DNA from: Prostheceraeus crozeri
Taxonomy: Eukaryota > Platyhelminthes > Polycladida > Euryleptidae
Reading direction: 5' to 3'
Length of the DNA: 64,000 bases
NCBI GenBank assembly: GCA_907163375.1
Contig: CAJQUW010008708.1
Coordinates: 1-64,000 of the forward strand
Every line of letters starts with the position of its first letter. Positions within the stretch are counted from its first letter, which is position 1. Below the pieces are notes generated by a model, which was not told the DNA's origin, ran no database searches, and worked only from the letters and a program-made list of their open reading frames with translations. The position numbers were made by a program, and so were the translations under genes. Positions 15,881 to 34,441 of this stretch are shown piece by piece.

Positions 15881-15902
15881 GACACTTCATACACGACGCG
15901 CC

Positions 15903-16261: not shown

Positions 16262-18459
16262 ATCACTCTGGAACAATTTACATGTTACTTTTTTCTAAGT
16301 TCATAAGTAGGTACATTAATAAGTTCTAAACCTTAAGAGATAGAAAATAACTTGATCAAAATTAATAAACTCTGTTACAATTTAATGTTAAGTTTTTAAT
16401 GTTAGAATTTATCAGCTGTTTGATTTTGAATCTTGTTTAAGTGAATACATTTTGTTTAACTGTATCATCTCAATGGCATGACGTCAGTAGGTCTTTGTTC
16501 GTAGTTGCTTTGTGCATTTCATATATAAAGAAAGTGTTGAAGCCAGTTCTTCACTCACTTTTGAATTATCAGCCTGCCTAGCAAGACGTCAGCTCCGATC
16601 TTTCAAACCTTAATCAATATTCTAAAGTGAGTTTGGAACAATTTACATGTTCCTTTTTTCTAAGTTCATAAGTAGGTACATTAATAAGTTCTAAACCTTA
16701 AGAGATAGAAAATAACTTGATCAAAATTAATAAACTCTGTTACAATTTAATGTTAAGTTTTTAATGTTAGAATTTATCAGCTGTTTGATTTTGAATCTTG
16801 TTTAAGTGAATACATTTTGTTTAACTGTATCATCTCAATGGCATGACGTCAGTAGGTCTTTGTTCGTAGTTGCTTTGTGCATTTCATATATAAAGAAAGT
16901 GTTGAAGCCAGTTCTTCACTCACTTTTGAATTATCAGCCTGCCTAGCAAGACGTCAGCTCCGATCTTTCAAACCTTAATCAATATTCTAAAGTGAGTTTG
17001 GAACAATTTACATGTTCCTTTTTTCTAAGTTCATAAGTAGGTACATTAATAAGTTCTAAACCTTAAGAGATAGAAAATAACTTGATCAAAATTAATAAAC
17101 TCTGTTACAATTTAATGTTAAGTTTTTAATGTTAGAATTTATCAGCTGTTTGATTTTGAATCTTGTTTAAGTGAATACATTTTGTTTAACTGTATCATCT
17201 CAATGGCATGACGTCAGTAGGTCTTTGTTCGTAGTTGCTTTGTGCATTTCATATATAAAGAAAGTGTTGAAGCCAGTTCTTCACTCACTTTTGAATTATC
17301 AGCCTGCCTAGCAAGACGTCAGCTCCGATCTTTCAAACCTTAATCAATATTCTAAAGTGAGTTTGGAACAATTTAAATGTTCCTTTTTTCTAAGTTCATA
17401 AGTAGGTACATTAATAAGTTCTAAACCTTAAGAGATAGAAAATAACTTGATCAAAATTAATAAACTCTGTTACAATTTAATGTTAAGTTTTTAATGTTAG
17501 AATTTATCAGCTGTTTGATTTTGAATCTTGTTTAAGTGAATACATTTTGTTTAACTATATCATCTCAATGGCATGACGTCAGTAGGTCTTTGTTCGTAGT
17601 TGCTTTGTGCATTTCATATATAAAGAAAGTGTTGAAGCCAGTTCTTCACTCATTTTTGAATTATCAGCCTGTGTAGCAAGACGTCAGCTCCGATCTTTCA
17701 AACCTTAATCAATATTCTAAAGTGAGTTTGGAACAATTTAAATGTTCCTTTTTTCTAAGTTCATAAGTAGGTACATTAATAAGTTCTAAACCTTAAGAGA
17801 TAGAAAATAACTTGATCAAAATTAATAAACTCTGTTACAATTTAATGTTAAGTTTTTAATGTTAGAATTTATCAGCTGTTTGATTTTGAATCTTGTTTAA
17901 GTGAATACATTTTGTTTAACTATATCATCTCAATGGCATGACGTCAGTAGGTCTTTGTTCGTAGTTGCTTTGTGCATTTCATATATAAAGAAAGTGTTGA
18001 AGCCAGTTCTTCACTCATTTTTGAATTATCAGCCTGCCTAGCAAGACGTCAGCTCCGATCTTTCAAACCTTAATCAATATTCTAAAGTGAGTTTGGAACA
18101 ATTTAAATGTTCCTTTTTTCTAAGTTCATAAGTAGGTACATTAATAAGTTCTAAACCTTAAGAGATAGAAAATAACTTGATCAAAATTAATAAACTCTGT
18201 TACAATTTAATGTTAAGTTTTTAATGTTAGAATTTATCAGCTGTTTGATTTTAAATCTTGTTTAAGTGAATACATTTTGTTTAACTATATCATCTCAATG
18301 GCATGACGTCAGTAGGTCTTTGTTCGTAGTTGCTTTGTGTATTTCATATATAAAGAAAGTGTTGAAGCCAGTTCTTCACTCATTTTTGAATAATCTGTCG
18401 GCCTGACAAGACGTTAGCTCTGTTCCTTTCCTGTGTCGAACTATATTTAATATTCTAAA
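16262..18459 (+). repeat. Six tandem 365-bp promoter/noncoding first-exon cassettes
   Basis: The period is 365 bp (the last unit is 373 bp). Each unit contains a perfect CRE palindrome TGACGTCA (16479, 16844, 17209, 17574, 17939, 18304). About 36 nt later comes a TATATAAAG box (16522, 16887, 17252, 17617, 17982, 18347). After about 30 nt there is a ~75-nt segment without ATG, ending in a strong splice donor CTAAA|GTGAGT (GT at 16627, 16992, 17357, 17722, 18087, 18460). The first acceptor downstream is TTTTACAG at 18768-18775, three bases before the ATG of the spliced gene. Confidence 0.85.
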
Positions 18460-18775
18460 GTGAGTTTGGAACAATTTAAATGTTACTTTTTCCTAAGTTT
18501 AAAAGTAGGTACATCAATAAGTTCTAAACCTAGAGAGATAGAAAAAGACTTGATCAAAATTAATAGACTTTGAGTTTTGATTATTAAGTTTATTAAAGAC
18601 TTTAGGTGTTCTACTTCGCATAATATTCACTACTACGATGTGACTTGGAACAATTTAAATGCTACTTTTTCTAAGTGTATAAGTATGTACATCAATATGT
18701 TCTAACACCTACAGATGCAAAATTTACATTTAAGCTATTTTGTGTTTTAAATATGGATTTATTTTTTTTACAGAC
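18460..18775 (+). repeat. Degenerate partial copies of the 365-bp unit and intron end
   Basis: Two shortened, diverged copies of the unit's start ('ggaacaatttaaatg.tactttt') begin at about 18467 and 18645. No TATA or CRE is in them. The stretch ends with a pyrimidine-rich tract and the acceptor AG at 18773-18774, directly before the coding start. Confidence 0.7.
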
Positions 18776-20495
18776 ATGACTCGTCCCAGCTGCTTACCTC
18801 GCCAACGTCTAATTTTTCATTATTGTGAGACCTGTAAGCAGGTGGTCCGCCACTCCATGAAGAGTCAACATAAGGGCTGCACTCTACGACAGGACCGCAG
18901 TTTCCTACACTGCCTATCGTGTAAAAGATACCTTTTAACGGACATGGAGGCAAAAGGCGAAAATCCAAAGAGATTTATCTCCACCCACACCAAGTGCGCC
19001 TTACGAAACGGGCGGGAGGGCCGAAACCTCACTAGTCTGGAGGAGAAGAAGAGAGTCGAGAGGCTGTTCGCCAAAGAGCGACCTCTTGAGGGCGTCCTCA
19101 GCCAAGCCCAGGAGGACTCTACCCCTGCAACGCCCCAAGCGAAGGCGAAACCCAAACCCAAACCCAAGTCCCGCAGGTATATCGAAACCGATTCCGACTC
19201 CTCGGATAGTGATGTTGAGGTGAGTTCATATTTAGAAAATTAGCAGTAACATAATTTAAAGAAAATATTTAGAGTTCAAACCTTATAGGGAAAGTTGACT
19301 TCTGTTTTGTTTTTCATATATAATAGTTTGCATTCCTTTTCACCATTTCAGATCAAGAAGCCACCTGTTAAGAAGATGAAAGTCGGGCAGAAGCCATCGA
19401 TTCCTGAAAGGAATGTAAGTTTGAAATGTCAAATCAGCAATTTATCTATTCATATGTATTTTCCGTTTTTCACATTTTAACTATGTTTCTTTTCTATCCA
19501 CAGGTAGTCGCTAGTACGCCCGCATGTAGCAGCTGGGCTGCGAAGCTTACGCCGCCTTCACAGAGAGTAAGTAATAGAAAATCAGTTTAGTCATATAAAA
19601 TAACATGATTAGATTACTAACTTAGGTCACATGCATACATTCAAATTCGAGAGGAATTTGAAATGTATTTTCCCTTGTAGAGCTACCGATCGCTCTCTCT
19701 AAAGAAGAGCAGGCAATCAAACTTCCTCGGCTTAACACCTGCAACGACATCGTCGATGGAGGAATATGAGGAGCGCCCGTACTCCATCCGGGAGTCCTCT
19801 TCAGATGAAGAAAATATAAGTATCAATCATAGGAATAGGCTAATAATCCTAACTATCATGTCATTACATCGAACTCGTGATGTAATGTCCCTTTCATTTA
19901 TTCAAATCTCTGTTTTTTCCAGCAACAGTTGACACTTGTTCCGGAAGTGGAGATTCCCTTCTCCCAAATCCGCGCCTCACCCAATATTGATGTCTGCTTC
20001 CCACCGTCTCCAATTCTCCACCGCGTCCCAACTCCACCTCAGCCACCAATGACTAACAACCCATCGTCACCACCTGCTCCTACGCCGATGCCCAACAGCC
20101 CAACACCGACAGTAATCCTCCCAACTTGTGATCCAACGTTCAACTGCGACCTCGATGAGACAGTTGAATCTGTGCTCGAGGTGGTCGAACCTCGTTCGAC
20201 GGAGGACAAAGTGCGTCACCTTGAACGTAAGTTGCGCCAACAAGAAGAACGCGAGACGGCTCTTCGCGCTGACTACAAGTCTCTGCTTGAGTCGTTCCGC
20301 AACATTTCGCAGGCTAACCTGCAACTGTCGCAATCGATAGTGAAGCGTGAAACAATAATGCACGTTGAGCTATCGAAAGCGGCAGTCATTAACAAAGTGC
20401 GCATGACACATGTCGATGACTTCTCAAGGTGTCATGGACATTGTGCTCACGTCAAGGTGACGCACAGTGAAATTATCAAGTGTCAATCTCTTTGA
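18776..20495 (+). CDS. Spliced five-exon Polinton gene: Cys/His-rich N-terminus, Pro-rich middle, coiled coil
   Basis: Coding exons are 18776-19219, 19352-19414, 19504-19566, 19681-19815 and 19923-20495. All junctions are in phase 0 and have GT..AG introns except intron 4, whose donor reads ATAAGTAT. The product has about 425 residues. Residues 1-80 contain repeated C-x2-C...H-x-GC and CLSC units, suggesting two or three zinc modules. Basic Lys/Pro repeats and an acidic DSDSSDSDVE run follow. Exon 5 has a proline-rich stretch and then a glutamine/glutamate-rich coiled coil (VRHLERKLRQQEERETALRA), ending in a Cys/His cluster. No enzyme motif is recognised; it could be a DNA- or RNA-binding regulator. 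The upstream promoter array probably supplies alternative untranslated first exons. Introns inside a Polinton gene imply nuclear expression. Confidence 0.7.
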
Positions 20496-20648
20496 CTTCT
20501 TTTTTGACTGCTACCTTTGGAAAAAAATAATTACTTGTACACTTTGTATGTCTTTTTATTTATGTATTTAAGTGGAAATATAAGTCTGAGGTTGGGAACA
20601 AATTCCATTGGTCGACGTCACTGGTTACGTAATATAATATGTAGACAG

Positions 20649-20688
20649 TATATAAGTAGACGCAAATTGTTAATCCTCAACGATCATC
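20649..20688 (+). promoter_or_regulatory. PolB promoter: TATATAAG plus AATCCTCAAC
   Basis: TATATAAG at 20649-20656 and AATCCTCAAC at 20672-20681 stand 8 nt before the PolB ATG at 20689. The spacing and motif match the gene-pair promoters at 14713-14861 and, in Polinton A, 1523-1532. The leader would be very short if the ATCCT motif is the initiator. Confidence 0.7.
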
Positions 20689-23600
20689 ATGGTTGTCTGC
20701 TCTAAGTGTGAAAAGAAGTTTACAATTGTTAGCAATTTAACGCGTCATGAAAAATTTTGCAAGCTAGGAATAAAGCATAAATGTAGTAATTGTCCATATG
20801 AAACCAGTAGGAAAGATAATTTAAAAAGACACAATCTCGTATGTTGCAGTCAAGAAGGAATAGGAACAAATAATACTAATTTATCATCTTGTAGTAGTCA
20901 TGTTAGGGACATTCCAGATAGCGCTTTAAATAATGATGAAGCTTTTAGGCATTGCTGCTCTCACTGTGGTAAGAATTATAATAGCACAAGTAGATTCCGT
21001 CAACACAATAATATACATGATATGAACATTGAAATGAGTAGTCACAATAATTATGGAACACTCACCCTTAGTGAAAGCGCCTTCAGCGGACGTGCTGGCG
21101 TGTATGACATTACACCAACCATTCAAACAATAGATGTAACATCTTTTTTATTCAACATGCGAACCTTACTAGAAAATTTAGTTAATGACCTGCGAACTAG
21201 TCTTCAACTACGTGGTCGATTAATTGCTCAAATTCGCTATGTCCGTTCTAATCCTCAAGAGGAAGAACCTTTTCTCGCGCACTTCACCTCATTATCATCA
21301 AATTATACATATGACTTTGACACATGGTTTCAGGATAATTTAAATAGTTTATCAAATCATGTTTCAACTTTTGCAAATAGAGGAAGCAATTGGGTTGTTG
21401 ATAAAGTAGTAAATGTAGAATTCAATTTAATTTCAACTCCTCTACTATCTGGTGGTAAAATGACTACTTAACCTAAAAAGTTAAGAAGTTCTAAAGCTGT
21501 AATAAATGTAAATTCAAATTCAAATGACTGCTTCATGTATTCAATCTTGTCAATTATTCACTACGATGAAGTTACTCATTCAAAGATAAACGAGGTAAAC
21601 TCATGTAGAAAGTGGACATCTGAATTGGTTATGGATGACATTTCCACACCAGTGTCAATAAAGGACATTCCTAAGTTTGAGAAAAACAATGACATAAAAG
21701 TAAATATCCACTTGTATGAAAATGGTCTCAAGGGAGTAAGATACAATAGCAATTTCATCGGTAAAAGAACCGTTAATATTTTCCTAGTGCTACATAACGG
21801 TTTTGCACATTATTGCGGCATGCGAAAATTATCTAGATTATGTAGCAAATTTTACACAAGTCGCAAGATTTTTTGTGAAAGATGCACTTAATCCTTTTCA
21901 AAGAGAAGCGTTTTAGAACGACATTTTCAATTCTGTAGTCGTGGTAAGGCGCAAATAGAAAAATGCCCAAACATTTAGAAGTTCAGATAAGTAGTACTGA
22001 GCACCAACTCAATCCACCTTTAGTCATATACACCGATATCGAGTGTTTAATAGAAAACAAAATTCATAAACCTGCGGCTGTAGGTGTGTACCACGTCTGG
22101 CATGAGGCTCTTCAGTCAACCTACAATAACACCTATTATCTGTTTGAAGGGGAAAATTGCATCGTTGAGTTCCTAAATCATTTAGAAGACGTTGTCCAAA
22201 ACTGATATGATAATCAAAATGTCATGACCAGAATGCCGATGCGATTGACAGCAGTGGAAGATATTGCTCATAAAAATGCAGAAAATTGCAATAAATGTAA
22301 GATAAAATTTAGTGAAGATATATCAAAAGTTCGTGATCACGATCACATAACCGGAAAGTACAGGCAAGCATTATGTTCAAAGTGCAATTTGCGATTAAGA
22401 TTGAATGAGAGCTTCCTGTTTTCTTTCACAATTTCAAAAACTATGACAGCCATATTGTTTGTTATAAAGCATTTGGTAAAAAGAAATCTTGGAAGTTAGA
22501 TGTTATTGCAGCTACTGCTGAGAAATATATTACTCTATCATTAAAAATTCCAGTAAGCGAATATAATGGAAAGCCTGTATATTTTAAATTGAAATTTTTG
22601 GACTCATATCAATTTCTGAGTGCATCGCTTGGTGAATTAGCCAAAAGTCTGAAAGTCTACAAACATGTAGAAGCGCTGCGAAATGAATTTCCAAAATTAA
22701 CTGATGATATTCTTTACGAAAAAGGAGTGTTTCCGTACTCATATTTTAGTAGTTTGGCAACTCTAACGGAGCTCTGTCTTCCTCCTCAAAGGGAATTTTA
22801 CAACGATCTTACTCTTGAGCATTGCAACGATATAGATTATGAGCACGCGAAAAAAGCATGGAATGCGTTTAATTGCAAAACATTTGGAGACTACATGCTT
22901 GCATACCTCAAGTTAGATGTCTTGCTGTTGGCAGACATTTTTGAGACATTTAGGAAATTAAGTCAAGATGAAGATCAAGTAGATCCAGTTCATTTTGTTA
23001 GCCTTCCTCACCTTAGCTTCACATCAGCATTGAATTTCGCTTCGAATGATCCCCCACACTACATTCAAGATGAGAGCATGTATAATCTTTTTGAGAGGGG
23101 GATCCGAGGAGGTATGACGTTTACAAATATTCATAGAGCGCGTGCTCGTATTTCAGAGTTGCAAAACAATTCACAAGAGAGCCGTCATTTAGCATATTTA
23201 GACGTCAACAACCTTTACGGTTCGTCGCTAAGTGAGAATCTCCCACATTCAAACTTCAAATGGCTTGATGAAGGTCAAGTAGTGTATTTCTCAAATGAGG
23301 AAAACATTCAAAATATTGATAATGAGGCTGATATAGGTTATGTCTTTGATTTGGATTTAGAATATCCTTCAGATATTCACGATTACACGGCTGATTTTCC
23401 ATTAGCTCCAGAAATGCAATTGGTAGAGCAAAAAATGTTTTCTACATATATGAAAAATTTCTATGAAACTTTAAGACCAAATATGTGTTTCACAAGCACA
23501 AAGAAACTGTTGCTGCATCAGTTCGATCGAGAAAATTATGTTGTTTATTACTCGATTCTAAAATTCTACCTCTCTATGGAAATGAAGATAAAGAAGGTCC

Positions 23601-24547
23601 ATGCTGGAATCCAGTTCACACAAAAATCGTGGCTGAGACAATATATTGATATGAATTCGCAGAAAAGAGCTCAATCAAAATCTGATTTTGAAAAAGCGTT
23701 TTATAAATTAAAAAACAACTCCCTGTTTGGTAAGACTATGGAGAATGTGAGACGTCGGAGGAACTTCAAATTATTAAATACAACATTTCAACTATCTAAA
23801 TTGGCCAATCATCCCCTATATGTCCATCATAGGATATTCGATGAAGATTTAGTTGGTATGGAACTGTATAAACCTTCAATAGTTCTAAATAAACTAATTT
23901 ATGTTGGACAAGCAGTTCTTGTCTATAGTAAATGAGGAATGTACCAGTTGTATTATAAAGATTTAATTAGATGTCCACTGATAAATAGAGCACGTAGATA
24001 CGTATACGTAGATACCGATAGCTTTTTCCTTTGTCTATACACCTCACCATCTGTTCGTCTAGAGGATATATTCCTGTATTTCGGTGAAAAATTTGATTCC
24101 TCAAATTATGATGTGAATCACCGTTTATATTCAATTACAAACAAGGCTAGACTCGGTTGTTTTAAGGATGAGTGCGCGGGAAAGTTGCTTGAGGAGATGG
24201 TTCTTTTGAAACCAAAAATTTATTCGATGAAATTTCTAGATTCAACACATCATAGCATTAGGCGAGCAAAGGGTATACAGAGAGCAGTGGTTAGACGCAT
24301 AGAACATAGTGACTATAGAAATGTTTACTATACTGAGAAAGATACCAATGAGCAAATAACCGTCATAAATTCAAAAAACCACATAGTTGAAACTAAAACG
24401 TTTAGAAAGCGAGGGCTCTCACTTTGGGAAGATAAGCGCTGCTGGATAAATAAGAACTTATCTTTACCATATGGACACTATAGCCTTGGACTTCCTCCTC
24501 CGTCGAAAAGACGAAAATGTCTTCCCACAGCAGGTGATGTAGAATAG
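20689..24547 (+). pseudogene. polB: Protein-primed family B DNA polymerase with N-terminal C2H2 fingers, inactivated
   Basis: The N-terminus (20689-21000) has zinc fingers CSKCEKKF, CSNCPYE and CSHCGKNY. The exonuclease domain shows YTDIECL (Exo I, near 22030), a CNKCKIKF...DHDHITG zinc ribbon near 22280, an Exo II-like segment near 22430 and YLKLDVLLLADIFE (Exo III, near 22910). Polymerase motifs are DVNNLYG (A), KNNSLFGKTMENV (B) and YVDTDSF (C, near 24010). This is the Polinton replicase, which would copy the element using a terminal protein. It is broken by in-frame stops at 21469, 21892, 22203 and 23933 and by frame changes near 21960 and 22420. Catalytic motifs themselves are intact, so decay is recent or scattered. 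The TATA-led start at 20689 is clear. Confidence 0.9.
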
Positions 24548-24753
24548 CGGATAGAACAACGGTAGAATCATTAAAAAATAACACGTAGGTAGTAAATATT
24601 TGAGTGTACATTTCTACATCTTTCCGATATGTAGAAATTGAATTTGAATACATAACAGCATTCAGCATCCTTCCGATATGTTGATTTGCAAACATAAACT
24701 AACTTTAGGCAATTATCAGATTATAATAATTACATTAAGAATAACTTCAGAAT

Positions 24754-25338
24754 ATGCCTCATTATATCAGAACATGGAAGTTAAGTGACAGACAAAAAAT
24801 TCACCTAACAGATTCAAGCAAAATAGTTTTTCGACATTCTGTAACAAATAGTAGAAATCATAGTGGTGTTTCTATTAGTAGTGACGCATTGCCCTCACTT
24901 AAAGATTTTGCTAATCTGATTGAGCGACATGATACTCGGATGAAGATTCCTCTGGATGAAAAGGTATGGATAAAATATGATTCAACTGTCAAACTTTACG
25001 TATGTTCATCCAAGAGGAAAGACGTTGATCATCGATTTTTTCGTTTCAGTGGCGTCACATGGGGTTCCTTTATAAAGGAGATTCTACCAAGTATAATTTC
25101 ATTCGTCAGAGATGGACGACATCAGTCAGATGAAAGTGGTGAATCGCATGGTGGTTACAAAAGCAAACTCAAAACTCAATCTACATCAAATCCAGCGAGA
25201 CATACCCAACAGAAATCAATGGCTAATAGTGAAGAAGAGGCGAAAGCCGACGACGAGTTTGTATCTGGGGCGACCCACAATGTTGACATGGAGAATTTTG
25301 AAGAAGGAGAAATCCATGACTGTCCTTTTCTTTCCTAA
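24754..25338 (+). CDS. Possible PC4-like single-strand-binding/transcription coactivator
   Basis: The product has 194 residues, starting at the ATG at 24754. Two segments look like successive copies of a short beta-sheet/helix unit. Residues 12-60 read KIHLTDSSKIVFRH... then GVSISSDALPSLKDFANLI. Residues 65-120 read KVWIKYDSTVKLYVC..., then FFRFSGVTWGSFIKEILPSI. The pattern of a beta-hairpin, a glycine/serine turn and an aromatic-plus-helix end resembles the PC4/Sub1 fold, which binds single-stranded DNA and assists transcription. This is pattern recognition without a search. The tail (125-194) is hydrophilic and acidic. It lies after PolB and overlaps the TBP-like frame by about 20 bp, which suits a transcription module. 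Alternatively it may be an unrelated accessory protein. Confidence 0.45.
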   Translation: MPHYIRTWKLSDRQKIHLTDSSKIVFRHSVTNSRNHSGVSISSDALPSLKDFANLIERHDTRMKIPLDEKVWIKYDSTVKLYVCSSKRKDVDHRFFRFSGVTWGSFIKEILPSIISFVRDGRHQSDESGESHGGYKSKLKTQSTSNPARHTQQKSMANSEEEAKADDEFVSGATHNVDMENFEEGEIHDCPFLS

Positions 25339-25674
25339 TGGAACAGTGCAGTGTGTTGGCTGCTTCGATGATTGTGATCTCAATTACTTACACTCCGTGT
25401 TGGAAATACTATTACGGGATAAATTACCTAATTGGAAAGTAAAACCATGACAGTGTTATGCGAATTGAATTATCGCTATGACTTTCGCAAAGTTTCCTCT
25501 ACGTCCAATCTTACTTATGAGGTGGAGTTATTTCCTGCTGCGCAAATGACAAATTGGCATCCTTATCACGTTCACGTGTTCCACAATGGAAAAGTTGTGA
25601 TAACTGGCATTAAAGACTTGAAAGTTGTATCCCAAATAATAAGTGATTTGAAAAATTATTTTGTAAAAAGTTGA
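25316..25674 (+). CDS. TBP-like (TATA-box-binding-protein fold) protein, one frame change
   Basis: The frame starting with ATG at 25316 gives VLFFPNGTVQCVG followed by a helix (LHSVLEILLRD). It runs into a stop near 25450, where the reading continues in the next frame after an A-run at 25441-25445. The second part (25447-25674) reads NLTYEVELFP, then VHVFHNGKVVITG and a helix (VVSQIISDLKNYF). The strands VLFFPNGTVQCVG and VHVFHNGKVVITG are internal repeats of each other, as in the two-fold TBP saddle, and YE.ELFP plus F.(N/S)GKVV.TG are the TBP family signature. The N-terminal half-repeat is short (about 1.5 repeats in all). The frame change is one base, by mutation or programmed slippage. 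It follows the PC4-like gene. Confidence 0.6.
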
Positions 25675-25785
25675 TGGACTGTTGTAAATAGTTTTTAAAT
25701 ATACATTTCAATTGTGAAACTTTGCACTCCCTCTAAACATTACGCTCTGGGAAATAAAACGAATTTTGCATATATAATGAATTTA

Positions 25786-26247
25786 TTACAAGACTGAGTT
25801 CATATAATTGTTGAGAATTACATCGTTTTTAGCACAATTTCTAGAGAATAATCGAATAACACTTTTATAGTCACTTTTCAAAGCTCGTTCATTAACAAAA
25901 TATAGTACGTAGCCCCCACACATAAGGGATCTATTACTTTGGAGTGGGAACGATGTCACTTTCTTTCTAGTCCATGAGAATCTATTCATCCATATTGATA
26001 TATCATGTAATGGCGGCTGATTGAGAGAGTCAAAATATTCAGCTACTCTATTGCGATTTATGTACACGGCAACCCAATGTTTACCACGAAGATTAACCGT
26101 GTCTGTATTTATAATCAGAGAACAGGGATATGACTGAATTGATGTAGGTAGTTCATCTCTTGAGAATACATTGAGAAACAATTTCTTGGAATAGGGATGA
26201 GCTTTCTTCATTAAGTTTAAGATTTCCACATTACTGAGGTTGCTCAT
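25786..26247 (-). CDS. Adenovirus-type maturation cysteine protease
   Basis: The intact product has 153 residues. Catalytic residues in family order are His in GKHWVAVY (near residue 56), the acidic EYFDS (near 69), Gln in PLQSNRS (near 102) and the nucleophile Cys in MCGGYVLYF (near 110). This is the adenain/C48-like triad used to cleave capsid precursors in Polintons and adenoviruses. The length is short but typical for Polintons. The ATG at 26247 overlaps the stop of the major capsid gene (ATGA), a tight late-gene arrangement. It is the last gene of the minus-strand block and converges with the TBP-like gene 110 bp away. No lesion is seen. Confidence 0.85.
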   Translation of the reverse strand: MSNLSNVEILNLMKKAHPYSKKLFLNVFSRDELPTSIQSYPCSLIINTDTVNLRGKHWVAVYINRNRVAEYFDSLNQPPLHDISIWMNRFSWTRKKVTSFPLQSNRSLMCGGYVLYFVNERALKSDYKSVIRLFSRNCAKNDVILNNYMNSVL

Positions 26248-27529
26248 CTCTGATAGTTGGCCAAGACGTCTCTCAATCTAGTAATTTCAATGCTGCTGTC
26301 ATAGATTGCGTAAAGTAAACCGGTTACAGGAACTTTCAAAGGATCCGCAAATGTGAGTTTCAATCGAAGGTAACCAGCTTTTGTAACATCCACATTTTCC
26401 CCAGTTATATCACAATCTGCTTTGAGGTTGTATAATATATAGAAGTAGCCATTCTTATACATATCCATCGTAATACCATTTGAATCGTCAGTGTTGAACA
26501 TGTCTAGTGCCATGAAAGTAGAGCAATATTCGCGAACAAAATTGTTTTCCTTAAAATTTGGTTGATAGGCCTTACAAGCAACTGAATTGCCATCTGCGAA
26601 TAGACCGAGTTTCGTGATACCAAAATGTTGAAAATGAAACGGATTCTTCTGAAAGTTACCACAAAATGATTCATTTTCTACAAACGCGATGTACACCGCC
26701 TTCGGTAGGGCAATTGGAAAGAGGTTGGGATAATCAAAAGATGAGGTAGTCGCCGGAATCGTAAAAGTGGATAGTACACTATGATTGACTGGATATATAG
26801 CATTGTGGTTCTTCAGTCCTACAGCATGTTGATTGATGACTGTGGGATTCATTTTTACTCGCCTTACATTGAGGACAGCTTCCGTTATGTGTACATCATA
26901 GGATGCAGCAGGTCCGAATGACATCAAAGCAAATTTTGATTTAGCACGAACAAATGTCAATCGTATTTGTACTTGAGATAGGAGGTATCTCGATTGACGG
27001 AAAAATCAAGATAGACAGAACCTTTTAGATGTAGTTCAGCTGAATCAGCAGTTAATTCCACACGCTTTTTCAAACCATTATTAGCGAAATCATCGAACTT
27101 ACCAGACTGATCTGTAAACCAACCAGCAGCTTGTAAGTGCGTTTGTTTGGCCTGGTTTTGAAACTGAGTCAATGTATATAAGTAAGCTCCATATCGATAT
27201 GATGAATCTCCTCCTTCAATCTGCTTATTATTTAGTGATAAAGTGACATCTGAGAAGAGACTGGCAATTGGGAGATTAATCAACCCCACTTTGTCCTTAG
27301 AATCAATGTTAGTACCATCAGTTTTTTTAATTTGTACACACAATTCCAAGTCAATAGACTGACAGTCGATGTAGTCATCAGGATTAGCAGTAACATCAAA
27401 CTGAATAGGTATGTCATTGCCCACAATATTTGTTGAGGGAAAATAGTCAACAATTCTCGACGAAATTATGTCAGTTTGCTGGGGTGATGTATCAAAAAAG
27501 CACAAAGCTGAATTGATAGTCGATTGCAT
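26244..27529 (-). pseudogene. Major capsid protein (double jelly-roll), split by one frameshift
   Basis: An upstream frame from the ATG at 27529 gives 190 residues with IPIQFDVTANPDDYIDC, LFSDVTLSLNNKQIE and SSYRYGAYLYTL, the conserved first jelly-roll region of Polinton major capsid proteins. A second frame to 26244 gives the C-terminal half with NHNAIYPVNHSVLSTFTIP, PIALPKAVYIAFV, a GYFYILYNL strand and a hydrophilic end. The two join at about 26955, where one base is gained or lost. The combined length of roughly 425 residues fits the family. The gene starts 11 nt after the stop of the arginine-rich protein and overlaps the protease start, so all three are probably transcribed together. 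Confidence 0.8.
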
Positions 27530-27539
27530 TTCGCTCAGT

Positions 27540-27985
27540 TTAGAAATATGTTAATCTCCTTCGTTTCGACTTATTTCCAACTGATTTCGATTTCCGCTTT
27601 CGCTTTCTTGTCTTCTTCACAGGAAGCTTCGATCTAGATTTCCTAACTCTTCGTCTTTCCAACTTGCCTTGTCTTGTTGCGCCTCTTACGAACAGGTCGT
27701 CTCGACTTTGTTAGGTCATCCAATGCATCATTAGCGGATTGCTGAGCACGGACTTTCATTGATTCTCCTATATCCGCTCCTTGGAGTGCATCCGCAGCAA
27801 CATTTGCACCAAAATCTAAAGCTCTGTTTCCTACGCGTTTCATCACTGGCAACGCATAGAGTTTAAGTCCAGGAAGTAATGCACGCTTTAATGCACCAAA
27901 TATTCCTCCTCCTACTTGTCGCCTACCTCCAGCAAATACGGGATATCCGCTTTGATATGATTGTCTGCTATAAAAGCCTGTGATT
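27540..27985 (-). pseudogene. pVI/pX-like minor virion protein, arginine-rich, frameshifted and without ATG
   Basis: The minus strand encodes FAGGRRQ, then the glycine-rich VGGGIFGALKRALLPGLKLYA and an amphipathic stretch (27700-27900) ending in a K/R-rich run. Near 27665 the frame changes to a strongly basic tail (KKTRKRKRKSKS) that ends at TAA 27540-27542. No ATG precedes the glycine-rich region in frame; the first ATG is internal at 27852. Small proteins with a G-G-G-I-F/L start and a basic tail stand next to the capsid gene in many Polintons and recall adenovirus core and membrane-lytic proteins. DNA condensation or endosome escape is inference. Start loss and frame change make this copy doubtful. 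Confidence 0.6.
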
Positions 27986-28027
27986 GTAAATTTTGAATTC
28001 TAAAGAATTTCACAATAGCGTAAAGCT

Positions 28028-29640
28028 TTAGTCTCGATTCTTAATATGTAATGTCAGCACAGTAACACCTCCATAGAATGGTACAATTTCACCCGCATCA
28101 TCATGAATTGAAATGTCGATTCTATTGATAACACTTCGATTGATCGGTAAATACATTTTGTTGATGAATTCACGATTGATTAACTGCTTCCGGACGGATG
28201 ATAGGGGAAATGTGCGTAGCAATGGAGCCTCGATGTCACCAACTCTAGTATACTCAACGATATTGCAGTAAATGTATAAGTTACTGATGTCTCTCTCTAA
28301 TGAAGGTGCTGAATTACCAATGGTTGTACCTTCATTTATTGTGAATTTTGAGAACCCTAGTATTGTTGCCAACATCTTGTCGAGCTAAATGAGATAATTT
28401 CTCCCTACTTTTAAAACCATTCGCTTCTTTAAGGGATCATATGAAAAGAAATACTCATCTGCGTTGAGGTAGTGTGCACCATTTTCATTCAGTTTTGTAC
28501 AAATTTCCGATGGTGTGTTTAGATCTTCAACGTTTAAATTGACCCTCCTTACTAGCTCAAGTGAGGTACTCAATTCTTCACCCAGTATTTTATCGGAATA
28601 TACATTGATGTGCCATGCGTCGTTTGTTGCTGTCTTTAGTTTATTGGAATTCAACTGAATCTTATATGTATCATTTAATTCTGTCAAACACGGTGGACTA
28701 TCAGGATGCTTGAATAGTCTCTGAATTTCAGATCCGAATTCAATAACAGGGGAATTAGACTTTTCCAAAGGTGTCTTTTTAGTGAAAACAAGAAATTCTA
28801 CCTCCATTTCAGCAGTAAAAAGAGTTACTTTCTCTTTCTTATATTCACAAGTCATTAAACTTTCTGGCACTGATCCTTGAAACTTTCTTGCAACGTCTTC
28901 AATATTTTTAATAACTTCAAATTTTTCCTTGACGCGGACACTCCTTTTCTGTAGTGCATACAACGGTGCAATTCTACATTGAAAATCACTAACTGTTCTC
29001 TCAGCTTTCCATCCAAGTCCATTATACCAATGCAGAGATGAAAATGTAGTTCTGGGAAACCCTAGAGCGTGTGCCAAATCTCTACCTAATATTAGCAGAA
29101 CATGCTTCCTCCCTTCTTTCAATAGTTTAGTTGAGCCTTTTACAACTGGCTTGAAGAATCTATTTAAAGTGAGAGTGAAGAGATCGTTTACTCGTCGGAA
29201 CATTTTACCAATTTCATTCTCTGTATCTTGCAAGCTGAGTGTGGGAACTGTAGAATTAAAGGAAGACGTTGCATATGCCTTTTCAATTTTGATCATGTTC
29301 TTGACAGACGGTAGCGATGGTGAGAAAGGATGTAAAGTAAGATGATGAAAATCCCATGTTCCATGTAGACCATTCTGAAATAGGCGAAAACAATCATCCT
29401 TTTCACGTACTTCCGTGTATATTTCAAAATAATTATTCGTTAACAAACTAATATCATTGTAATATGTGACTTCAGTTAATGCGACTTCGTGAGGGCCACT
29501 CAGATAAAGAGGCTGGCAAACTAAACCGAATACTCCGATGGTTTGTTCTCTGGAAATATCTTGGGATTGCTGTTGCTCGGGAGAATGATGTTGAACTCAG
29601 CAGACGACATTATTGGATATAATGTGGAATCAGTAGTCAT
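28028..29640 (-). pseudogene. Minor capsid (penton-like) protein with an internal TAG and a frameshift
   Basis: The N-terminus (ATG at 29640 or 29610) reads FNIILPSNSNPKIFPEN, the conserved opening of Polinton minor capsid proteins. A frame change near 29520 leads into LYLSGPHEVALTEV. The long middle part has LGRDLAHALGF, and the C-terminus (28028-28375) reads VINRIDISIHDDAGEIVPF...GVTVLTLHI, again hallmark strands. A single in-frame TAG stands at 28385-28387 between NYLI and LDKML. The full length would be about 530 residues. It forms the vertices of the predicted virion. Neighbours are the integrase upstream and the pX-like gene downstream. Confidence 0.8.
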
Positions 29641-29654
29641 TCACCAATATTAGC

Positions 29655-30743
29655 TTAAAAGCTTCTAATGTCTCCTACTTCCACATTTCTCAAGTCTTGA
29701 TGGGCTATCCAACTGTTGAACGAGTCAGGATATCCCTTCCATTTGACGAGATATTTTCTATGATTACCATGTCCTTTCCTCTTAACTATTCTATCTATCA
29801 TATACACTTCTTCACTCCGATCAACAACCTGTAATTCATATGAGTAGAATTTCCTTTCAATTGGATTACCATGATAGTCTATTAACTTATACATTGTTGG
29901 TTTAAATTTTTTATTTACTTCATCAACAAAGAATTCTTCTTCGGTCCAGTTCGGTAGATAGCCCTTCTCGAATGTAGACTTCACTTTAGAGATGCGAACT
30001 CTATCACCAACGTTGATTTTCTTCTTATCGGTAGTTGCTTTTGGTGCCTTGCCATACAGACGAAGAACCAAATCCATAGCATTATCCCGAGTGACGTCGA
30101 TTGGACGCATCTTTATAATCCGATGATAGCTCTCATTGTAATTTCTCACGAACTTCTGTAAATCATCTATCCAGACATGTGTATTTTTAGCACTGAAATA
30201 CCGCCATATCTTTGTCTTGAGTGTACGATTGAACCTCTCAACCATCGCAGCTTTGTAAGCACTTTTAACACTGAACAGTTCAATGCCATATCGCTCAAGT
30301 AGACCACGAACGTGGGAATTTTCGAATTCCTTTCCTTGATCTGTTTGTATTCTTTGTGGGATCCTCCCTTCATTTAGAATACTTTGAAAAGGCGCCTCAA
30401 CTTCTGCTCCTCTCTTGGATTTCAAGGCACGATCCCAAACATATCGTGATAAAATATCTATCACGGTTAGGATGTACTTGTAACCGTCATTGTATTGAGA
30501 TATCTGCTGCATATCAGCCAAATCTGCTTGCCATTGACTGTCAATATTATTGACAACATATCTCCTAGTTAGAAACCGCTTCCTCGCATCCTTGTGTAGC
30601 GTGTAGGTTGGTTGACTCTTCAACCATTTCTTCACTGTCTCTATTCGTACACCTGCTGCACGGGCTAAAACGCTCGGACGACTAAAGCTTGCGGGATGAT
30701 TGATATTGTAGTAGATTTGTCTCAGTTTTTCCGCTGCGCTCAT
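29655..30743 (-). CDS. Polinton RVE integrase with C-terminal chromodomain
   Basis: The start is the ATG at 30743 (MSAAEKLRQIYYN); the open frame upstream begins only with TTG. In order come a helix-turn-helix-like region (SVLARAAGVRIETVKKWL), an HH-less linker, and the RNase-H-like core with Asp in WQADLADM, Asp in QTDQGKEF and Glu in MVERFNRTL (33 residues between the last two). A basic beta-barrel-like part (INVGDRVRISKV) and a chromodomain (YMIDRIVKRKGHGNHRKYLV, KWKGYPDSFNSW) follow. About 362 residues, uninterrupted. It cuts and joins element ends to target DNA, making the 6-bp duplication seen at both ends; the chromodomain may steer it to chromatin. This is one of the best preserved genes of the element. 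Confidence 0.92.
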   Translation of the reverse strand: MSAAEKLRQIYYNINHPASFSRPSVLARAAGVRIETVKKWLKSQPTYTLHKDARKRFLTRRYVVNNIDSQWQADLADMQQISQYNDGYKYILTVIDILSRYVWDRALKSKRGAEVEAPFQSILNEGRIPQRIQTDQGKEFENSHVRGLLERYGIELFSVKSAYKAAMVERFNRTLKTKIWRYFSAKNTHVWIDDLQKFVRNYNESYHRIIKMRPIDVTRDNAMDLVLRLYGKAPKATTDKKKINVGDRVRISKVKSTFEKGYLPNWTEEEFFVDEVNKKFKPTMYKLIDYHGNPIERKFYSYELQVVDRSEEVYMIDRIVKRKGHGNHRKYLVKWKGYPDSFNSWIAHQDLRNVEVGDIRSF

Positions 30744-30909
30744 CCTCCTTATTCTGGCGACTCGCTCGAGTATTACTTGCACAGCAACTGCTAACTCAAT
30801 TGATATCAACTTCTATACCCTCTTCTCCTTTACTATCGAGCGCAGACTTCAAACAGCAGCAAATTTTCTGCATAGACATGATATGGGAAGCAATTTCACT
30901 GTTATTTGC

Positions 30910-31559
30910 CTAATATTTGCTATAACTTTTCGGTGTTCGTGTTGAACGTCTCCCTCTTCTCTTCGGAGTTGGAGACGTAGCAGGAGCAACAATGGGTTCT
31001 CGCTTGACTGTGGTAACTACTTTTCCTTTTGAAGAATCGGTTGCCAACACTTTATGCAGTTCATTTATAGTTGGTCCTCCGACTATATTATGGGGACGTT
31101 GTGATTAGATAGCACTTCTTGAAAGTATTCCTATCCTTGTGGAGCACCCAGCTTTCGCCTTACATCTCTCACAGCATATTGTAGAAGATCATCAATGTGA
31201 CTGTTCCTAATTACATCACCGTTTTCTTCTATTATTTCTCCTCGCTCATTGAACTTTACGTGGGGATCAATAAAATCAAACAACTTTTCAGCTCGCATGC
31301 GATATGCTCGAGGAGTTGAAAGAGTTATGAATTTCCGCAGCTTTTCCCTAATATGTCGTCTTTCCTCTAAATTCTCAGCCTGTAACTGCATTTGTCGATA
31401 AGGATCCTCAATCTTTTGAATTTCCCCATCCTGTTGAGATAATTGCTTAAGTTGATCTGTAACCGGCTGATCCACATTTTTAACTTCCTGAATATTTCTT
31501 GTCATTGATAGCTGTAGATATTTCTCTTGAGGAATGACAACCACTTTTGAAAAACTCAT
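30910..31559 (-). pseudogene. Conserved Polinton coiled-coil protein, C-terminus broken
   Basis: The likely start is MSFSKVVVIPQEKY at 31559; an upstream in-frame ATG at 31589 is possible. The first 140 residues are glutamine/glutamate/lysine-rich and helical (QLKQLSQQDGEIQKIED, EERRHIREKLRKF), followed by FDFIDPHVKFNERGEI and a DDLLQYAVRDVRRKLG helix. A TAG ends that frame at 31131. The next segment (EYFQEVLSN) precedes a frame change near 31090, then VGGPTINELHKVL and a basic, proline-rich tail (SPTPKRRGRRSTRTPKSYSK) to 30910. The position between ATPase and integrase is typical of an unnamed Polinton gene. A possibly analogous gene in Polinton C is at 53824-54639. Confidence 0.6.
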
Positions 31560-31623
31560 ATTGAAAATGTCATAGTAGCTGAAGCACATATGTATTGCTT
31601 AAAACTGTCATTGGTCCAATTAA

Positions 31624-32287
31624 TTAACTGTTAACAGTGAATACTATCATTGCATCTCCAGAGTTTGGTATGATATTAGTTCGAAATCGAAATCGCTCTG
31701 GGCATTCCTGCGTTAAATCAATGAAGAGGTAGCCATGTGGCTTCTTCGTCACTTCATCATATATTTTCGAAAGAGTTTTTAGGCTGCTGAGGTAATATTT
31801 GTCGACTCAAGTGATGTATCTGACTACTATCTCTTGGATTCTTGAAAACCACCAAATAGTGTGTATTAAGACTTCTAGTTCTCTGCTCTTTTCCTCCATC
31901 AAAGATATTTTGAGTGATGTAGATGATAAAAGCTTGTCTATGGTGTGCTGTTTGAATAAACATTTCGGTTACATCTTTTGAAGATTTGCTTTCGCGAAGT
32001 AGATCATCCAACACGATCAAATCACCTGCTCGGTTATCTTCAGTTGGTGGTAACCCCTGTTTTACTTCGTATGCCTGCTGTCGAAGTGCAGAATGCAGAT
32101 CTGGTTGAAAAATACCGTAGTACCATTTAACCTGTTTTATTTTCTTATTAAACATCTCATCTCTGTATTGCAGTAGCTGAGTTACAAAAGTTGTTTTACC
32201 AGACTGACTTGGTCCGGCCACACACATTGTGCGGTCAGTGAATAGTCGAAAATCTGTCATTTCAGAGTCATTCAATATCATCATCAT
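31624..32287 (-). pseudogene. FtsK/HerA-type DNA-packaging ATPase, C-terminal frameshift
   Basis: The start at 32287 opens MMMILND. Walker A is AGPSQSGKTTF (near residue 27), Walker B is LIVLDDLL (near 92) and a polar sensor ITQNIFD follows. This is the A32-like ATPase that packs DNA into Polinton virions. The main frame stops at 31757. The conserved C-terminal segment (KPHGYLFIDLTQ, FRFRTNI) continues in another frame after a change near 31770 and ends at TAA 31624-31626. The lesion lies after the catalytic core. The full length of about 220 residues fits the family. Confidence 0.85.
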
Positions 32288-32380
32288 TTACTAACACCCA
32301 TTATTTTGCTTAGTTAGAACTTAAAACATGTAAATTATTTCCAAACAAGTTTTATTGAAACGATAAACAGTTGTTTTAAT

Positions 32381-33154
32381 TTACCACATTTGAGTGTCTG
32401 CATCGAGAGTAGAATCGAAGGAACTCTTCAAGTCAGTTTGTGCATCCTGTCGCCTCAGTTTTAGCTTCATGCTGTCCCTCGATTTGCGCGTCCTTTTCTT
32501 GCTTTCATCAACCTCCTTGGCTTCTTTTCCATCGTTTGATTCTTTCGGCTCACTTGGTGTAGCAATGTCTTCAATATGAATTAAGCACTTGTCAATTGGT
32601 AATGGTTCATAAACCAATTGTAGAACCTTCATCTGAAGAGAAGCCAATTTACCACTTGAACCATGAGCGCCAATGTAAAGTACAGTAACGTGTACCAAAT
32701 CCATGTATCGCCCACGCTTGAGATCATCACAATCCATTGGGTTTGACAGCACATCAAACGCTTGGAAATCGTCAGATAATTTTAAGAAGAGAGTATCAAA
32801 CTCAGGTAGATCTTTGAATCCACTCCCTTCCTCCAACTTCTTCTTCCAATATACCTGAGCACTCTCAGGTAGTTCGACACATTCCTTTGCGAATGAATCA
32901 TTCATTTTTAGCATAGTTTGCTGCCATTTAGGAAATGTGACACGCATTTGTCTTAGATTGCTGTAGCTAGACGATGACATCCCATTGCTATGAAAAAATG
33001 GAACTTGTAAATATAATTCATCATCACCATAATTAAGCGCTTGAAAATAAAACGTGTTTCCGATTCCTTGAACCTTTCGCGTTGGTCTAAATTCCAAGAG
33101 ATCGCGATCAACAGCGTCGCCCTCTTCTTTAATTATGTGCATTTTAAGAGACAT
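32381..33154 (-). CDS. Unknown Polinton protein with own TATA promoter
   Basis: The ATG at 33154 (MSLKMHIIKEEG) is preferred to the earlier GTG because CTATATAAGA lies about 75 nt upstream, near 33226-33237. The product has about 257 residues. The first 200 residues look like a compact domain (LLEFRPTRKVQGIGNTFYF, LYLQVPFF, MKVLQLVYEPLP). The C-terminal 55 are charged and low-complexity (ESNDGKEAKEVDESKKRTRK). No enzyme motif or membrane segment is seen. A single-stranded-DNA-binding role would fit a beta-rich core plus acidic/basic tail, but I cannot support it from motifs. It is uninterrupted, unlike most neighbours. Confidence 0.65.
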   Translation of the reverse strand: MSLKMHIIKEEGDAVDRDLLEFRPTRKVQGIGNTFYFQALNYGDDELYLQVPFFHSNGMSSSSYSNLRQMRVTFPKWQQTMLKMNDSFAKECVELPESAQVYWKKKLEEGSGFKDLPEFDTLFLKLSDDFQAFDVLSNPMDCDDLKRGRYMDLVHVTVLYIGAHGSSGKLASLQMKVLQLVYEPLPIDKCLIHIEDIATPSEPKESNDGKEAKEVDESKKRTRKSRDSMKLKLRRQDAQTDLKSSFDSTLDADTQMW

Positions 33155-33225
33155 TTTGTTGTTGTTGCTGTTGTACTCCCACTGACGAATGATCACTTGA
33201 AAATGACTCCTGAAAGCTCGCACGC

Positions 33226-33237
33226 CTATCTTATATA
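33226..33237 (-). promoter_or_regulatory. TATA box for the gene at 32381-33154
   Basis: Read on the minus strand the sequence is GCTATATAAGAT, 72-80 nt before the ATG. The ATCCTCAAC element seen at the plus-strand genes is not present here. Confidence 0.6.
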
Positions 33238-33294
33238 GCCTTCAATCAATGTCAATGAGTAATTGATGACGTGTCGATTTCTGATTTGTTGGCT

Positions 33295-33690
33295 TTATGC
33301 CAGCAATGCGACACCTGTAATAATTCTTCCTAGAGGACTGTCAAGCACTTTGGAAATACTATTACTGATGTCATTTAGCATATCCATAAAGCCACCACCT
33401 CCATGTTGAATCATATTTCTCCTGACTTTATCACTACCCCTAGGATTCGAAAATTTGAGAATGTTTTTGATAGACGTAGGATTCAACAAAGGCTTGTATA
33501 TTGGAAGACATTTGTGAATTGTAAAGGCCAAATCACGTATGAAGTCATCACTTGAATTTTGAATTAATTCACACTTCCTCCGATTATTATGTATTTTATT
33601 CAATTTCCGCAATGCCTTCTTAAACTGACTTGAAGGTTTAAATGACCGTTTCTTTCGGGGAAAAGACCGTCGTTTTCTTTGTACAACCAT
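33295..33690 (-). CDS. Small basic virion-core-type protein
   Basis: The start MVVQRKRRSFPRKKRSF at 33690 is preferred; an upstream ATG at 33735 would add a hydrophobic 15-residue leader. About 131 residues. The first 45 are strongly basic. Then follows a helical region and a C-terminus with VRRNMIQHGGGGFMDMLNDI and a hydrophobic end (LGRIITGVALLA). Small proteins with a basic head and a Q-x-G-G-F/G-F hydrophobic tail are common in Polintons and are thought to be packaged with DNA; the role here is inference. The frame is open. It lies upstream of the unknown gene and downstream of 33946-34431. Confidence 0.6.
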   Translation of the reverse strand: MVVQRKRRSFPRKKRSFKPSSQFKKALRKLNKIHNNRRKCELIQNSSDDFIRDLAFTIHKCLPIYKPLLNPTSIKNILKFSNPRGSDKVRRNMIQHGGGGFMDMLNDISNSISKVLDSPLGRIITGVALLA

Positions 33691-33735
33691 ATTTCTTTTT
33701 TTTACAACAATGAATGAGAAGAAAGCGAATAACAT

Positions 33736-33945
33736 TATTGCTTAATACATACAATGATGATAATTCAAACTACAAATAGCATTGTTGCTCAATACATACA
33801 TGTAATACACGATGTCACTTCAAACATTGACAGATGGTAGTTTATAGTCATTAATGTCACTTAAGGTTTGTTTCGTTGCAATTATCAACTGTTTAAGATC
33901 ACTCATTAAGTCCATCGAGAGGGGACAACACCTACAACATGACAT
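33736..33945. other. Intergenic spacer
   Basis: AT-rich spacer between two minus-strand genes; contains a near-duplicate 'cattgttgctcaatacata'. No gene. Confidence 0.5.
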
Positions 33946-34431
33946 TTAGGCGTACAAACGCAGAAGATTCGCATAGTATGCTCGAAACTTAGCAGTGTCA
34001 TCTCGATCCAGCGCCGCCACGTTGATGCTGACGGATGGTGGACCAGCAAATACGTCAACTTTCAATTTTACACCATCTTCTTTATAATGGCTGAACGTTA
34101 TCAGGTCATGCAGGCATGTGTTGAAAAATCGCGTTCTGTTATAGCAATAACAGCGAGAATGAGTAGGAATTGTCTCAGTTCCACTTAGTGGTTGGAACAC
34201 TTCTTCAAGCCAAAATTTGGTCACTCTTGTCAGCACTTCAATCAATGCGTTCATTAGGATTTTCTGCACCTCAACGTTGTCTTCACACTTGAAGAATTTT
34301 ACAATGTCCTCCATCAAATCTACTAAGTCAGCTTTGTAACCTGTTACGTCGTCACTACAATAAAATATAAATCCTTTGAATTTCTTGCCTTGATGAACAA
34401 GTGCTACAGGGATATAGCTGCTGAAGGTCAT
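33946..34431 (-). CDS. Unknown accessory protein of Polinton B
   Basis: The product has 161 residues from the ATG at 34431 (MTFSSYIPVALVHQGKKF). The frame is open. Secondary structure appears mixed: beta-rich ends (FKGFIFYCSDD; VKLKVDVFAGPPSVSINVAALD) and a central helical region (VQKILMNALIEVLTRVTKFW). Four Cys are scattered without a clear zinc pattern. No signal peptide. A CTATAAGAG box lies about 60 nt upstream. I do not recognise the family. As an outer gene next to the TIR and the RING gene it is most likely an accessory, host-facing function; this is inference. Confidence 0.55.
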   Translation of the reverse strand: MTFSSYIPVALVHQGKKFKGFIFYCSDDVTGYKADLVDLMEDIVKFFKCEDNVEVQKILMNALIEVLTRVTKFWLEEVFQPLSGTETIPTHSRCYCYNRTRFFNTCLHDLITFSHYKEDGVKLKVDVFAGPPSVSINVAALDRDDTAKFRAYYANLLRLYA

Positions 34432-34441
34432 GCTCAATCTT

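What the first reader, a model, noticed from the sequence alone, without database searches (positions are those of the whole stretch)
25316..25674. A Polinton that encodes its own TBP-like protein
The two strands VLFFPNGTVQCVG and VHVFHNGKVVITG are internal repeats, each followed by a helix, and YEVELFP precedes the second one: this is the saddle-repeat pattern of the TATA-binding protein. TBP homologues are known from some large DNA viruses, but I know of none as a standard Polinton gene. The gene follows PolB, and several genes of the same element have strong TATATAAG boxes, so an element-specific promoter-recognition system is plausible. The first half-repeat is short, so it may be a minimal TBP.
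Basis: partly seen in the sequence, partly recalled or inferred. Interest (0 to 1): 0.88.

Follow-up and report, generated by a model that had tools for sequence, protein, structure and literature searches.

The report
TBP-like protein gene in a Polinton
A large virus-like transposon carries a gene for a relative of the cell's TATA-binding protein, the factor that marks where gene reading starts, so this kind of element may choose its own promoters; the copy seen here is damaged, but an intact version is in public data.

Summary
The finding holds. The window contains a 22.2-kb Polinton (13589-35799) with terminal inverted repeats, a 6-bp target-site duplication and an integrase with a chromodomain. 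At 25097-25674 it carries a TBP-family gene. The second TBP repeat alone passes Pfam's cut-off (PF00352, 31.5 bits); the first-repeat frame falls just below (21.7). Ten database proteins are relatives. Nine span both repeats in one frame of 119-132 aa; one matches the window's residues except at the junction. All ten match PF00352, and their profile finds TBP structures (E 2.7e-10). The window copy is broken: the frame shifts between the repeats, and PolB and the putative capsid gene are interrupted too. Three of four DNA-kinking phenylalanines align with cellular TBP. As annotated, relatives lack the first strand and helix of repeat 1; that piece may be overprinted on the preceding gene's tail, but evidence is mixed and the search could not see longer relatives. 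Most likely function: an element-encoded initiation factor steering host RNA polymerase II, perhaps to late genes without TATA boxes, as herpesvirus ORF24/BcRF1 does. That is inferred. Ten literature searches showed me no Polinton TBP.

The parts
13589..35799 (.). Polinton element, 22.2 kb
   Evidence: inverted repeats at both ends, flanked by the same 6 bp GACGAA at 13583-13588 and 35800-35805; integrase with chromodomain, C48-type protease
13589..14181 (+). left terminal inverted repeat (a further similar block 14196-14259)
   Evidence: 566-column alignment with 564 identities and one gap, plus a 141-bp perfect outer block
35165..35799 (-). right terminal inverted repeat (a further similar block from 35123)
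20689..24547 (+). zinc-finger/PolB gene region, interrupted: stops at 21469, 22203 and 23933 within continuing frames (the first could instead be a gene boundary) and frame changes near 21890-21950 and 22400-22500
   Evidence: three-frame reading; C2H2 fingers by Pfam; PolB motifs by eye (recalled), no DNA-polymerase profile or structure hit for the pieces
24754..25338 (+). ORF1, 194 aa; conserved gene between PolB and TBP; its tail overlaps the TBP frame
25097..25450 (+). TBP repeat-1 frame (ATGs at 25112, 25280 and 25316 among others); ends at a stop in this copy
   Evidence: PF00352 21.7 bits, profile 2-71 of 85, from 25112; residues from 25316 on are shared with the intact relative P0001 except at the junction
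25447..25674 (+). TBP repeat-2 frame, 75 aa
   Evidence: PF00352 31.5 bits; TBP structures, whole-sequence E 3.6e-5; ten relatives
25786..26247 (-). cysteine protease, C48 type (adenain-like, recalled)
   Evidence: PF02902 21.2 bits, cut-off 20.7
26244..27529 (-). putative major capsid protein gene, interrupted (two ORFs in different frames)
   Evidence: ORFs; identity recalled from Polinton gene content, no profile hit for the two pieces and no PDB hit for the one tested
29655..30743 (-). integrase with chromodomain
   Evidence: PF00665 46.7 bits (cut-off 32.6), PF00385 37.1 bits (cut-off 25.1)
31757..32287 (-). packaging-type ATPase (type recalled)
   Evidence: weak ATPase matches, below Pfam cut-off
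20649..20656 (+). TATATAAG box 40 bp upstream of the zinc-finger/PolB ORF
14823..14830 (+). TATATAAG box 68 bp upstream of ORF 14891
14753..14760 (-). TATATAAG box 55 bp upstream of ORF 14705(-)
33230..33237 (-). TATATAAG box 83 bp upstream of ORF 33154(-)

Best explanation
A lineage of Polintons carries a TBP-family gene downstream of PolB. Its product has both TBP repeats, the first diverged and, as annotated, shortened (119-132 aa in the relatives found). It most likely works as an element-encoded transcription initiation factor: it binds and bends DNA at the element's own promoters and brings in host RNA polymerase II, probably for genes lacking a TATA box such as the capsid/packaging cluster, while host TBP serves the early-type genes that have TATATAAG boxes. 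SHOWN: TBP homology, presence of the gene in a Polinton, relatives reading both repeats in one frame, breakage of this copy. INFERRED: that the relatives also sit in Polintons, DNA binding, promoter choice, polymerase recruitment, the early/late split.
Against: No DNA context could be seen for the relatives. The window copy cannot make the full protein. Repeat 1 is weak on its own: hhalign probability 10%, 16.0 bits from 25265 on and no PF00352 match from 25316 on, no TBP among PDB hits, E 5.4 with the yardstick profile. The fourth phenylalanine and the repeat-1 asparagine have no clear counterpart and the repeat-2 asparagine aligns to threonine, so canonical TATA binding is not assured. The predicted structure is of low confidence (pLDDT 53, pTM 0.41), with no Foldseek match at E <= 0.001. 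No late-promoter motif is established; the one candidate is post hoc.
Confidence: 0.72

Rival explanations
1. The protein is a competitor of host TBP: it occupies TATA boxes or general transcription factors and damps host transcription rather than driving the element's own genes.
For: The relatives found are shorter than cellular TBP and lack part of repeat 1, as a partial, non-productive TBP would. The TATATAAG boxes upstream of four ORFs are of a kind host TBP could already serve (recalled knowledge).
Against: Such a competitor would also hit the element's own TATA promoters. I know of no Polinton precedent (recalled).
Confidence: 0.15
2. A replication-side protein: the TBP fold is reused for single-stranded or bent DNA, working with PolB and ORF1.
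For: It lies in a PolB-ORF1-TBP cluster on one strand. ORF1's low-confidence model is nearest to PUR-alpha, an ssDNA-binding fold (recalled). Giardia TBP, which has lost key phenylalanines, prefers ssDNA (abstract and introduction of PMC12209930).
Confidence: 0.12
3. A captured host TBP fragment without function, decaying in this element.
For: The window copy is frame-broken, as are PolB and the putative capsid gene.
Against: Besides P0001, eight relatives at 53-76% identity to it keep one frame through both repeats; a dead fragment would not.
Confidence: 0.05
4. The split into two ORFs is functional: two half-saddle proteins are made by stop-restart at the overlap and assemble as a heterodimer.
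For: The two window ORFs overlap at a stop/start, and each resembles one TBP repeat.
Against: P0001 has the window's own residues in one uninterrupted frame, eight other relatives also span the junction, and this element has other interrupted genes. P0003 (77 aa, repeat 2 only) does not span it, but comes from a 698-base contig.
Confidence: 0.04

Closest known systems
Cellular TBP (PF00352), eukaryotic and archaeal
   Same: both repeats in the same order and register; three of four intercalating phenylalanines align; YExELFP and F..GK..TG motifs in repeat 2
   Different: relatives found are 119-132 aa against about 180 for the core (recalled); first strand and helix of repeat 1 missing or overprinted; repeat 1 diverged; carried by a transposon
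Beta/gamma-herpesvirus TBP-like late factors (EBV BcRF1, MHV-68/KSHV ORF24, HCMV UL87)
   Same: virus-encoded TBP-like protein; early-type promoters with canonical TATA boxes alongside genes without
   Different: the herpesvirus protein works with five other viral proteins and has about 10% identity to TBP (PMC4893493, passages); here sequence homology is plain and no partner set is known
TBPs of giant viruses, and TBP genes in mirusvirus-like elements of Cymbomonas
   Same: DNA-virus-encoded TBP genes (PMC11464507, PMC12085832, PMC10675990; passages)
   Different: the two giant viruses seen also encode TFIIB, one of them with its own polymerase subunits; [quoted passage not shown]
Divergent Giardia TBP
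   Same: TBP that has departed from canonical DNA-contact residues
   Different: [quoted passage not shown] here three of four align

Membership tests
TBP family (PF00352) | profile match above curated cut-off | tested here: met
   repeat-2 ORF 31.5 bits and P0001 40.4 bits against 22.9; repeat-1 ORF 21.7, just below
TBP family (PF00352) | two tandem repeats in register | tested here: met
   in relatives: family profile 2-111 aligns to positions 52-169 of a human TBP chain; P0004 2-115 to TBP model positions 56-179
TBP family (PF00352) | complete repeat 1 (first strand and first helix) | tested here: inconclusive
   absent from annotated relatives, but the search was limited to about 131 aa; possible overprinted copy: 21.7 bits against 14.4-20.3 in 20 randomised controls, but no match alone and no register match with a yardstick profile
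TBP family (PF00352) | four DNA-intercalating phenylalanines | tested here: inconclusive
   three of four align and are conserved (roles recalled); the fourth lies in the unaligned part
TBP family (PF00352) | saddle fold | tested here: inconclusive
   [not shown]
TBP family (PF00352) | TATA binding; TFIIA/TFIIB contact | not testable with these tools
   needs biochemistry
Polinton/Maverick | long terminal inverted repeats and 6-bp target-site duplication | tested here: met
Polinton/Maverick | retroviral-type integrase, often with chromodomain | tested here: met
   PF00665 and PF00385 above cut-off
Polinton/Maverick | protein-primed PolB | tested here: inconclusive
   motifs by eye (recalled) in an interrupted gene; no polymerase match for pieces
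Polinton/Maverick | adenain-like protease, packaging ATPase, double jelly-roll capsid protein | tested here: inconclusive
   C48 protease above cut-off; ATPase below cut-off; capsid recognised by recall only
Herpesvirus late TBP-like factors (BcRF1/ORF24/UL87) | TATT-type late promoter recognition within a viral pre-initiation complex | not testable with these tools
   only an analogy; partner genes were not sought

The most novel reading that the evidence does not exclude
The element's intact relatives encode a full two-repeat TBP of about 187 aa in which the first strand and helix of repeat 1 are overprinted, in another frame, on the acidic tail of ORF1. This TBP acts as the element's own late-promoter factor, which would make Polintons perhaps the smallest DNA elements with a private TBP-based switch that steers host RNA polymerase II.
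Probability: 0.13. Interest if true: 0.85.

Novelty: new variant of a known kind. Interest (0 to 1): 0.66.

Why it matters
How Polintons express their virus-like genes is largely unexplored (recalled). A conserved TBP of their own would give a concrete handle: a small DNA-binding protein whose target sites could be read out directly. It would add a further setting for virus-encoded TBP, besides giant viruses and herpesviruses, in an element of about 22 kb with no RNA polymerase gene recognised among the ORFs scanned, and possibly a naturally shortened TBP for asking how much of the saddle is needed.

Tried and rejected
Functional split TBP (two half proteins): rejected because nine relatives, one with the window's own residues, read through the junction in one frame.

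Overprinted first strand and helix: left open. For: the frame is open to MLTWR, but so it is in 2756 of 20000 synonymous resamplings of ORF1, so openness alone is not rare; the real score is 21.7 bits, 0 of 20 randomised controls reached it and none aligned before profile position 24, while the real one starts at 2. Against: no Pfam hit for that stretch alone; with my yardstick profile 88 of 5000 shuffles reached the real whole score and 242 of 5000 the best-domain score, and the stretch aligned to another strand of the profile; with the family's own repeat-2 profile 1008 of 2000 shuffles reached it.

Length limit: the search with repeat 2 (75 aa) can only return proteins of about 41-131 aa, so full-length or fused relatives were invisible to it. 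The search with the repeat-1 ORF (112 aa) allowed up to about 196 aa and returned P0001 only (1 of 2 candidates). The search with ORF1 (194 aa) allowed up to about 340 aa and returned three ORF1 proteins of 186-198 aa (3 of 30 candidates), none with the TBP part.

Relatives by DNA: none confirmed by tblastn in viral contigs with TBP, PolB piece, integrase, ORF1, ATPase or capsid piece or in genome contigs with TBP. These scans start from two to six short peptide patterns and may leave out the window's own genome, so absence is weak evidence.

ORF1 identity: no Pfam or PHROG hit, nothing below E 0.7 in the PDB; the structure model is too poor (pLDDT 33) for the PUR-alpha resemblance to count as more than a lead.

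Late-promoter motif: TAAGCAAWA occurs three times in the element, each 9-25 bases upstream of a minus-strand ORF start (33735, 32287, 31589), and once in the rest of the window. It was picked by eye after looking, so it is only a lead.

Literature: ten searches, seven of them pairing Polinton, Maverick or adintovirus with TATA, TBP or TFIID terms (3, 2, 10, 7, 2, 1 and 1 papers). No listed title or abstract start reports a Polinton TBP. I looked at passages in five papers and at the outlines of two. One search showed 20 of 661 papers, none of the 20 holding the word Polinton.

Full report
THE ELEMENT. The window holds a 22.2-kb element at 13589-35799 with inverted repeats at both ends (a 141-bp perfect outer block, then an alignment with 564 of 566 identical) and the same six bases, GACGAA, on each side. 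It encodes an integrase with a chromodomain (PF00665 46.7 bits, PF00385 37.1 bits, both above cut-off), a cysteine protease of the C48 type (21.2 bits against 20.7) and an ATPase with weak matches only. PolB and the capsid protein I recognise from motifs and gene content that I recall; the pieces searched gave no polymerase or capsid hit. Together this is a Polinton. The near-identical ends suggest a recent insertion, yet PolB is broken by stops at 22203 and 23933, probably also at 21469, and by frame changes, and the putative capsid gene by a frame change, so this copy is defective.

THE GENE. The repeat-2 ORF scores 31.5 bits against PF00352 and the repeat-1 ORF, read from 25112, 21.7 bits, the cut-off being 22.9. 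Against solved structures repeat 2 alone finds TBPs from a whole-sequence E of 3.6e-5; the repeat-1 ORF alone finds none, its best hit being ribosomal protein eL28 at 0.067. Among 1967 stop-to-stop peptides of the window, the repeat-2 ORF matches a TBP yardstick at E 1.4e-6, the next peptide at 0.52, and the repeat-1 ORF at 5.4.

RELATIVES. A protein search with repeat 2 returned ten relatives, all ten of its candidates. Nine run through both repeats as one frame of 119-132 aa; the tenth (P0003, 77 aa, on a 698-base contig) holds repeat 2 only. P0001 carries the same residues as the two window ORFs except at the junction and is uninterrupted, so an intact version exists and the split in the window is damage. 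The search could return only proteins of about 41-131 aa, so longer relatives were out of sight. All ten match PF00352. The family profile lists 50 sequences among solved structures: 35 TBPs from E 2.7e-10 (one deposited under a locus name; its being TBP is recalled), several with continuous alignment across both repeats, and 15 others, caspase-1 and a collagen adhesin, at E 0.31 or worse. NCBIfam TBP models agree (best E 1.8e-8 for P0004), though no curated cut-off is reached, and the window's repeat-1 ORF has no hit there. Profile-profile comparison with four TBPs recalled from memory gives probability 95%, E 3.8e-8 for a single comparison, over 113 columns; repeat 1 alone gives 10% and repeat 2 alone 83.5%.

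WHAT IS KEPT AND LOST. In the alignment three of the four phenylalanines that kink DNA in TBP (roles recalled) have counterparts: P0001 positions 6, 73 and 89, the last two invariant in the family and the first nearly so. The fourth falls in the part where alignment fails. The repeat-2 asparagine that contacts DNA aligns to threonine. Alignments to TBP models begin at about model position 50-56, preceded in P0006 and P0010 by only a dozen residues (MLTWRMLKK...), so the annotated relatives lack the first strand and helix of repeat 1.

THE OVERLAP. ORF1 (24754-25338) is a conserved gene (P0011-P0013, 96, 67 and 62% identity). Its tail lies over the start of the TBP frame. In P0012 and P0013 ORF1 ends at NVNMED(T/S)EEG. 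Worked out by hand from the genetic code, this reads in the next frame as (T/M)-x-(T/I)-W-(K/R)-(I/T)-x-(K/R)-(K/R), compatible with the window's MLTWRILKK; the MLTWRMLKK of P0006 and P0010 would need a different ORF1 residue at one place. So the overlap itself is probably old (inference, no DNA seen). Whether TBP reading starts further upstream, adding a first strand and helix in the overlapped stretch, is open: the Pfam score with that stretch is 21.7 bits against 16.0 from 25265 on, and 20 of 20 randomised controls stay below it (14.4-20.3), but other tests are unsupportive and a frame open that far is not rare (2756 of 20000). Gene callers tend to reject long same-strand overlaps (recalled), so the annotated starts do not decide it.

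PROMOTERS. TATATAAG occurs five times in the element and four times in the remaining 41.8 kb. Four of the five lie 40-83 bp upstream of an ORF start on the same strand (20689+, 14891+, 14705-, 33154-); the fifth, at 27175, does not. The other 12 minus-strand ORF starts examined, capsid and ATPase among them, show no TATATAAG in the 160 bases upstream (the RING ORF has a run of TA and ORF 34431 a GCTATAAG); nor do ORF1 and the TBP starts at 25112 and 25280. A post hoc candidate, TAAGCAAWA, sits just upstream of three minus-strand ORFs. This resembles an early/late division but has not been shown to be one.

MECHANISM. The likeliest reading is an element-encoded initiation factor that takes host RNA polymerase II to promoters host TBP serves poorly. 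Beta/gamma-herpesviruses do this with TBP-like proteins that bind TATT late promoters (PMC4893493, passages), and KSHV ORF24 needs its TBP-like phenylalanines and pre-assembles with polymerase (PMC12529657, abstract). Rivals are a decoy of host TBP and a replication-side DNA-binding protein; the second draws on the neighbouring PolB, on ORF1's faint PUR-alpha resemblance and on Giardia TBP's ssDNA binding (PMC12209930, abstract and introduction).

NOVELTY. Virus-encoded TBP is known from giant viruses and herpesviruses. In ten searches of the held library I saw no report of a TBP in a Polinton (listed under Tried and rejected); most subscription papers, and preprints, are not held, so this is not proof of absence. 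I rate it a new variant of a known kind.

LIMITS. No genomic context for relatives, no host identity, no other copies from the same genome (genome search did not complete), no experiment.

Noticed in passing
window 52500-64000: A second, very AT-rich (about 25% GC) Polinton-like element running off the window end: PolB-like pieces at 56510-57772(-) and 60013-60468(-), an ATPase-like piece at 55915-56289(+), virion-like ORFs at 54142-55468 (identities recalled, no Pfam match above cut-off). No convincing TBP match in it.
   Followed up: partly
window 24754-25338: ORF1, a conserved gene of unknown family between PolB and TBP; low-confidence model, nearest rows PUR-alpha.
   Followed up: partly
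window 16238-18572: Tandem array of six to seven units of 365 bp inside the Polinton: 98-100% identity over 300 bases in six copies, end copies more diverged.
   Followed up: no
window 8284-8620 and 46005-46322: Outer inverted repeats (337 columns, 92.6% identical, partly TGACCCA-type units) that bracket the Polinton and its flanks; could be another nested element.
   Followed up: partly
window 34555-35082 (-): RING-finger protein at the right end of the Polinton (PF13920 35.9 bits, cut-off 27).
   Followed up: no
window 33735, 32287, 31589 (-): TAAGCAAWA just upstream of three minus-strand ORF starts, once elsewhere in the window; possible late-gene motif, found by eye.
   Followed up: partly
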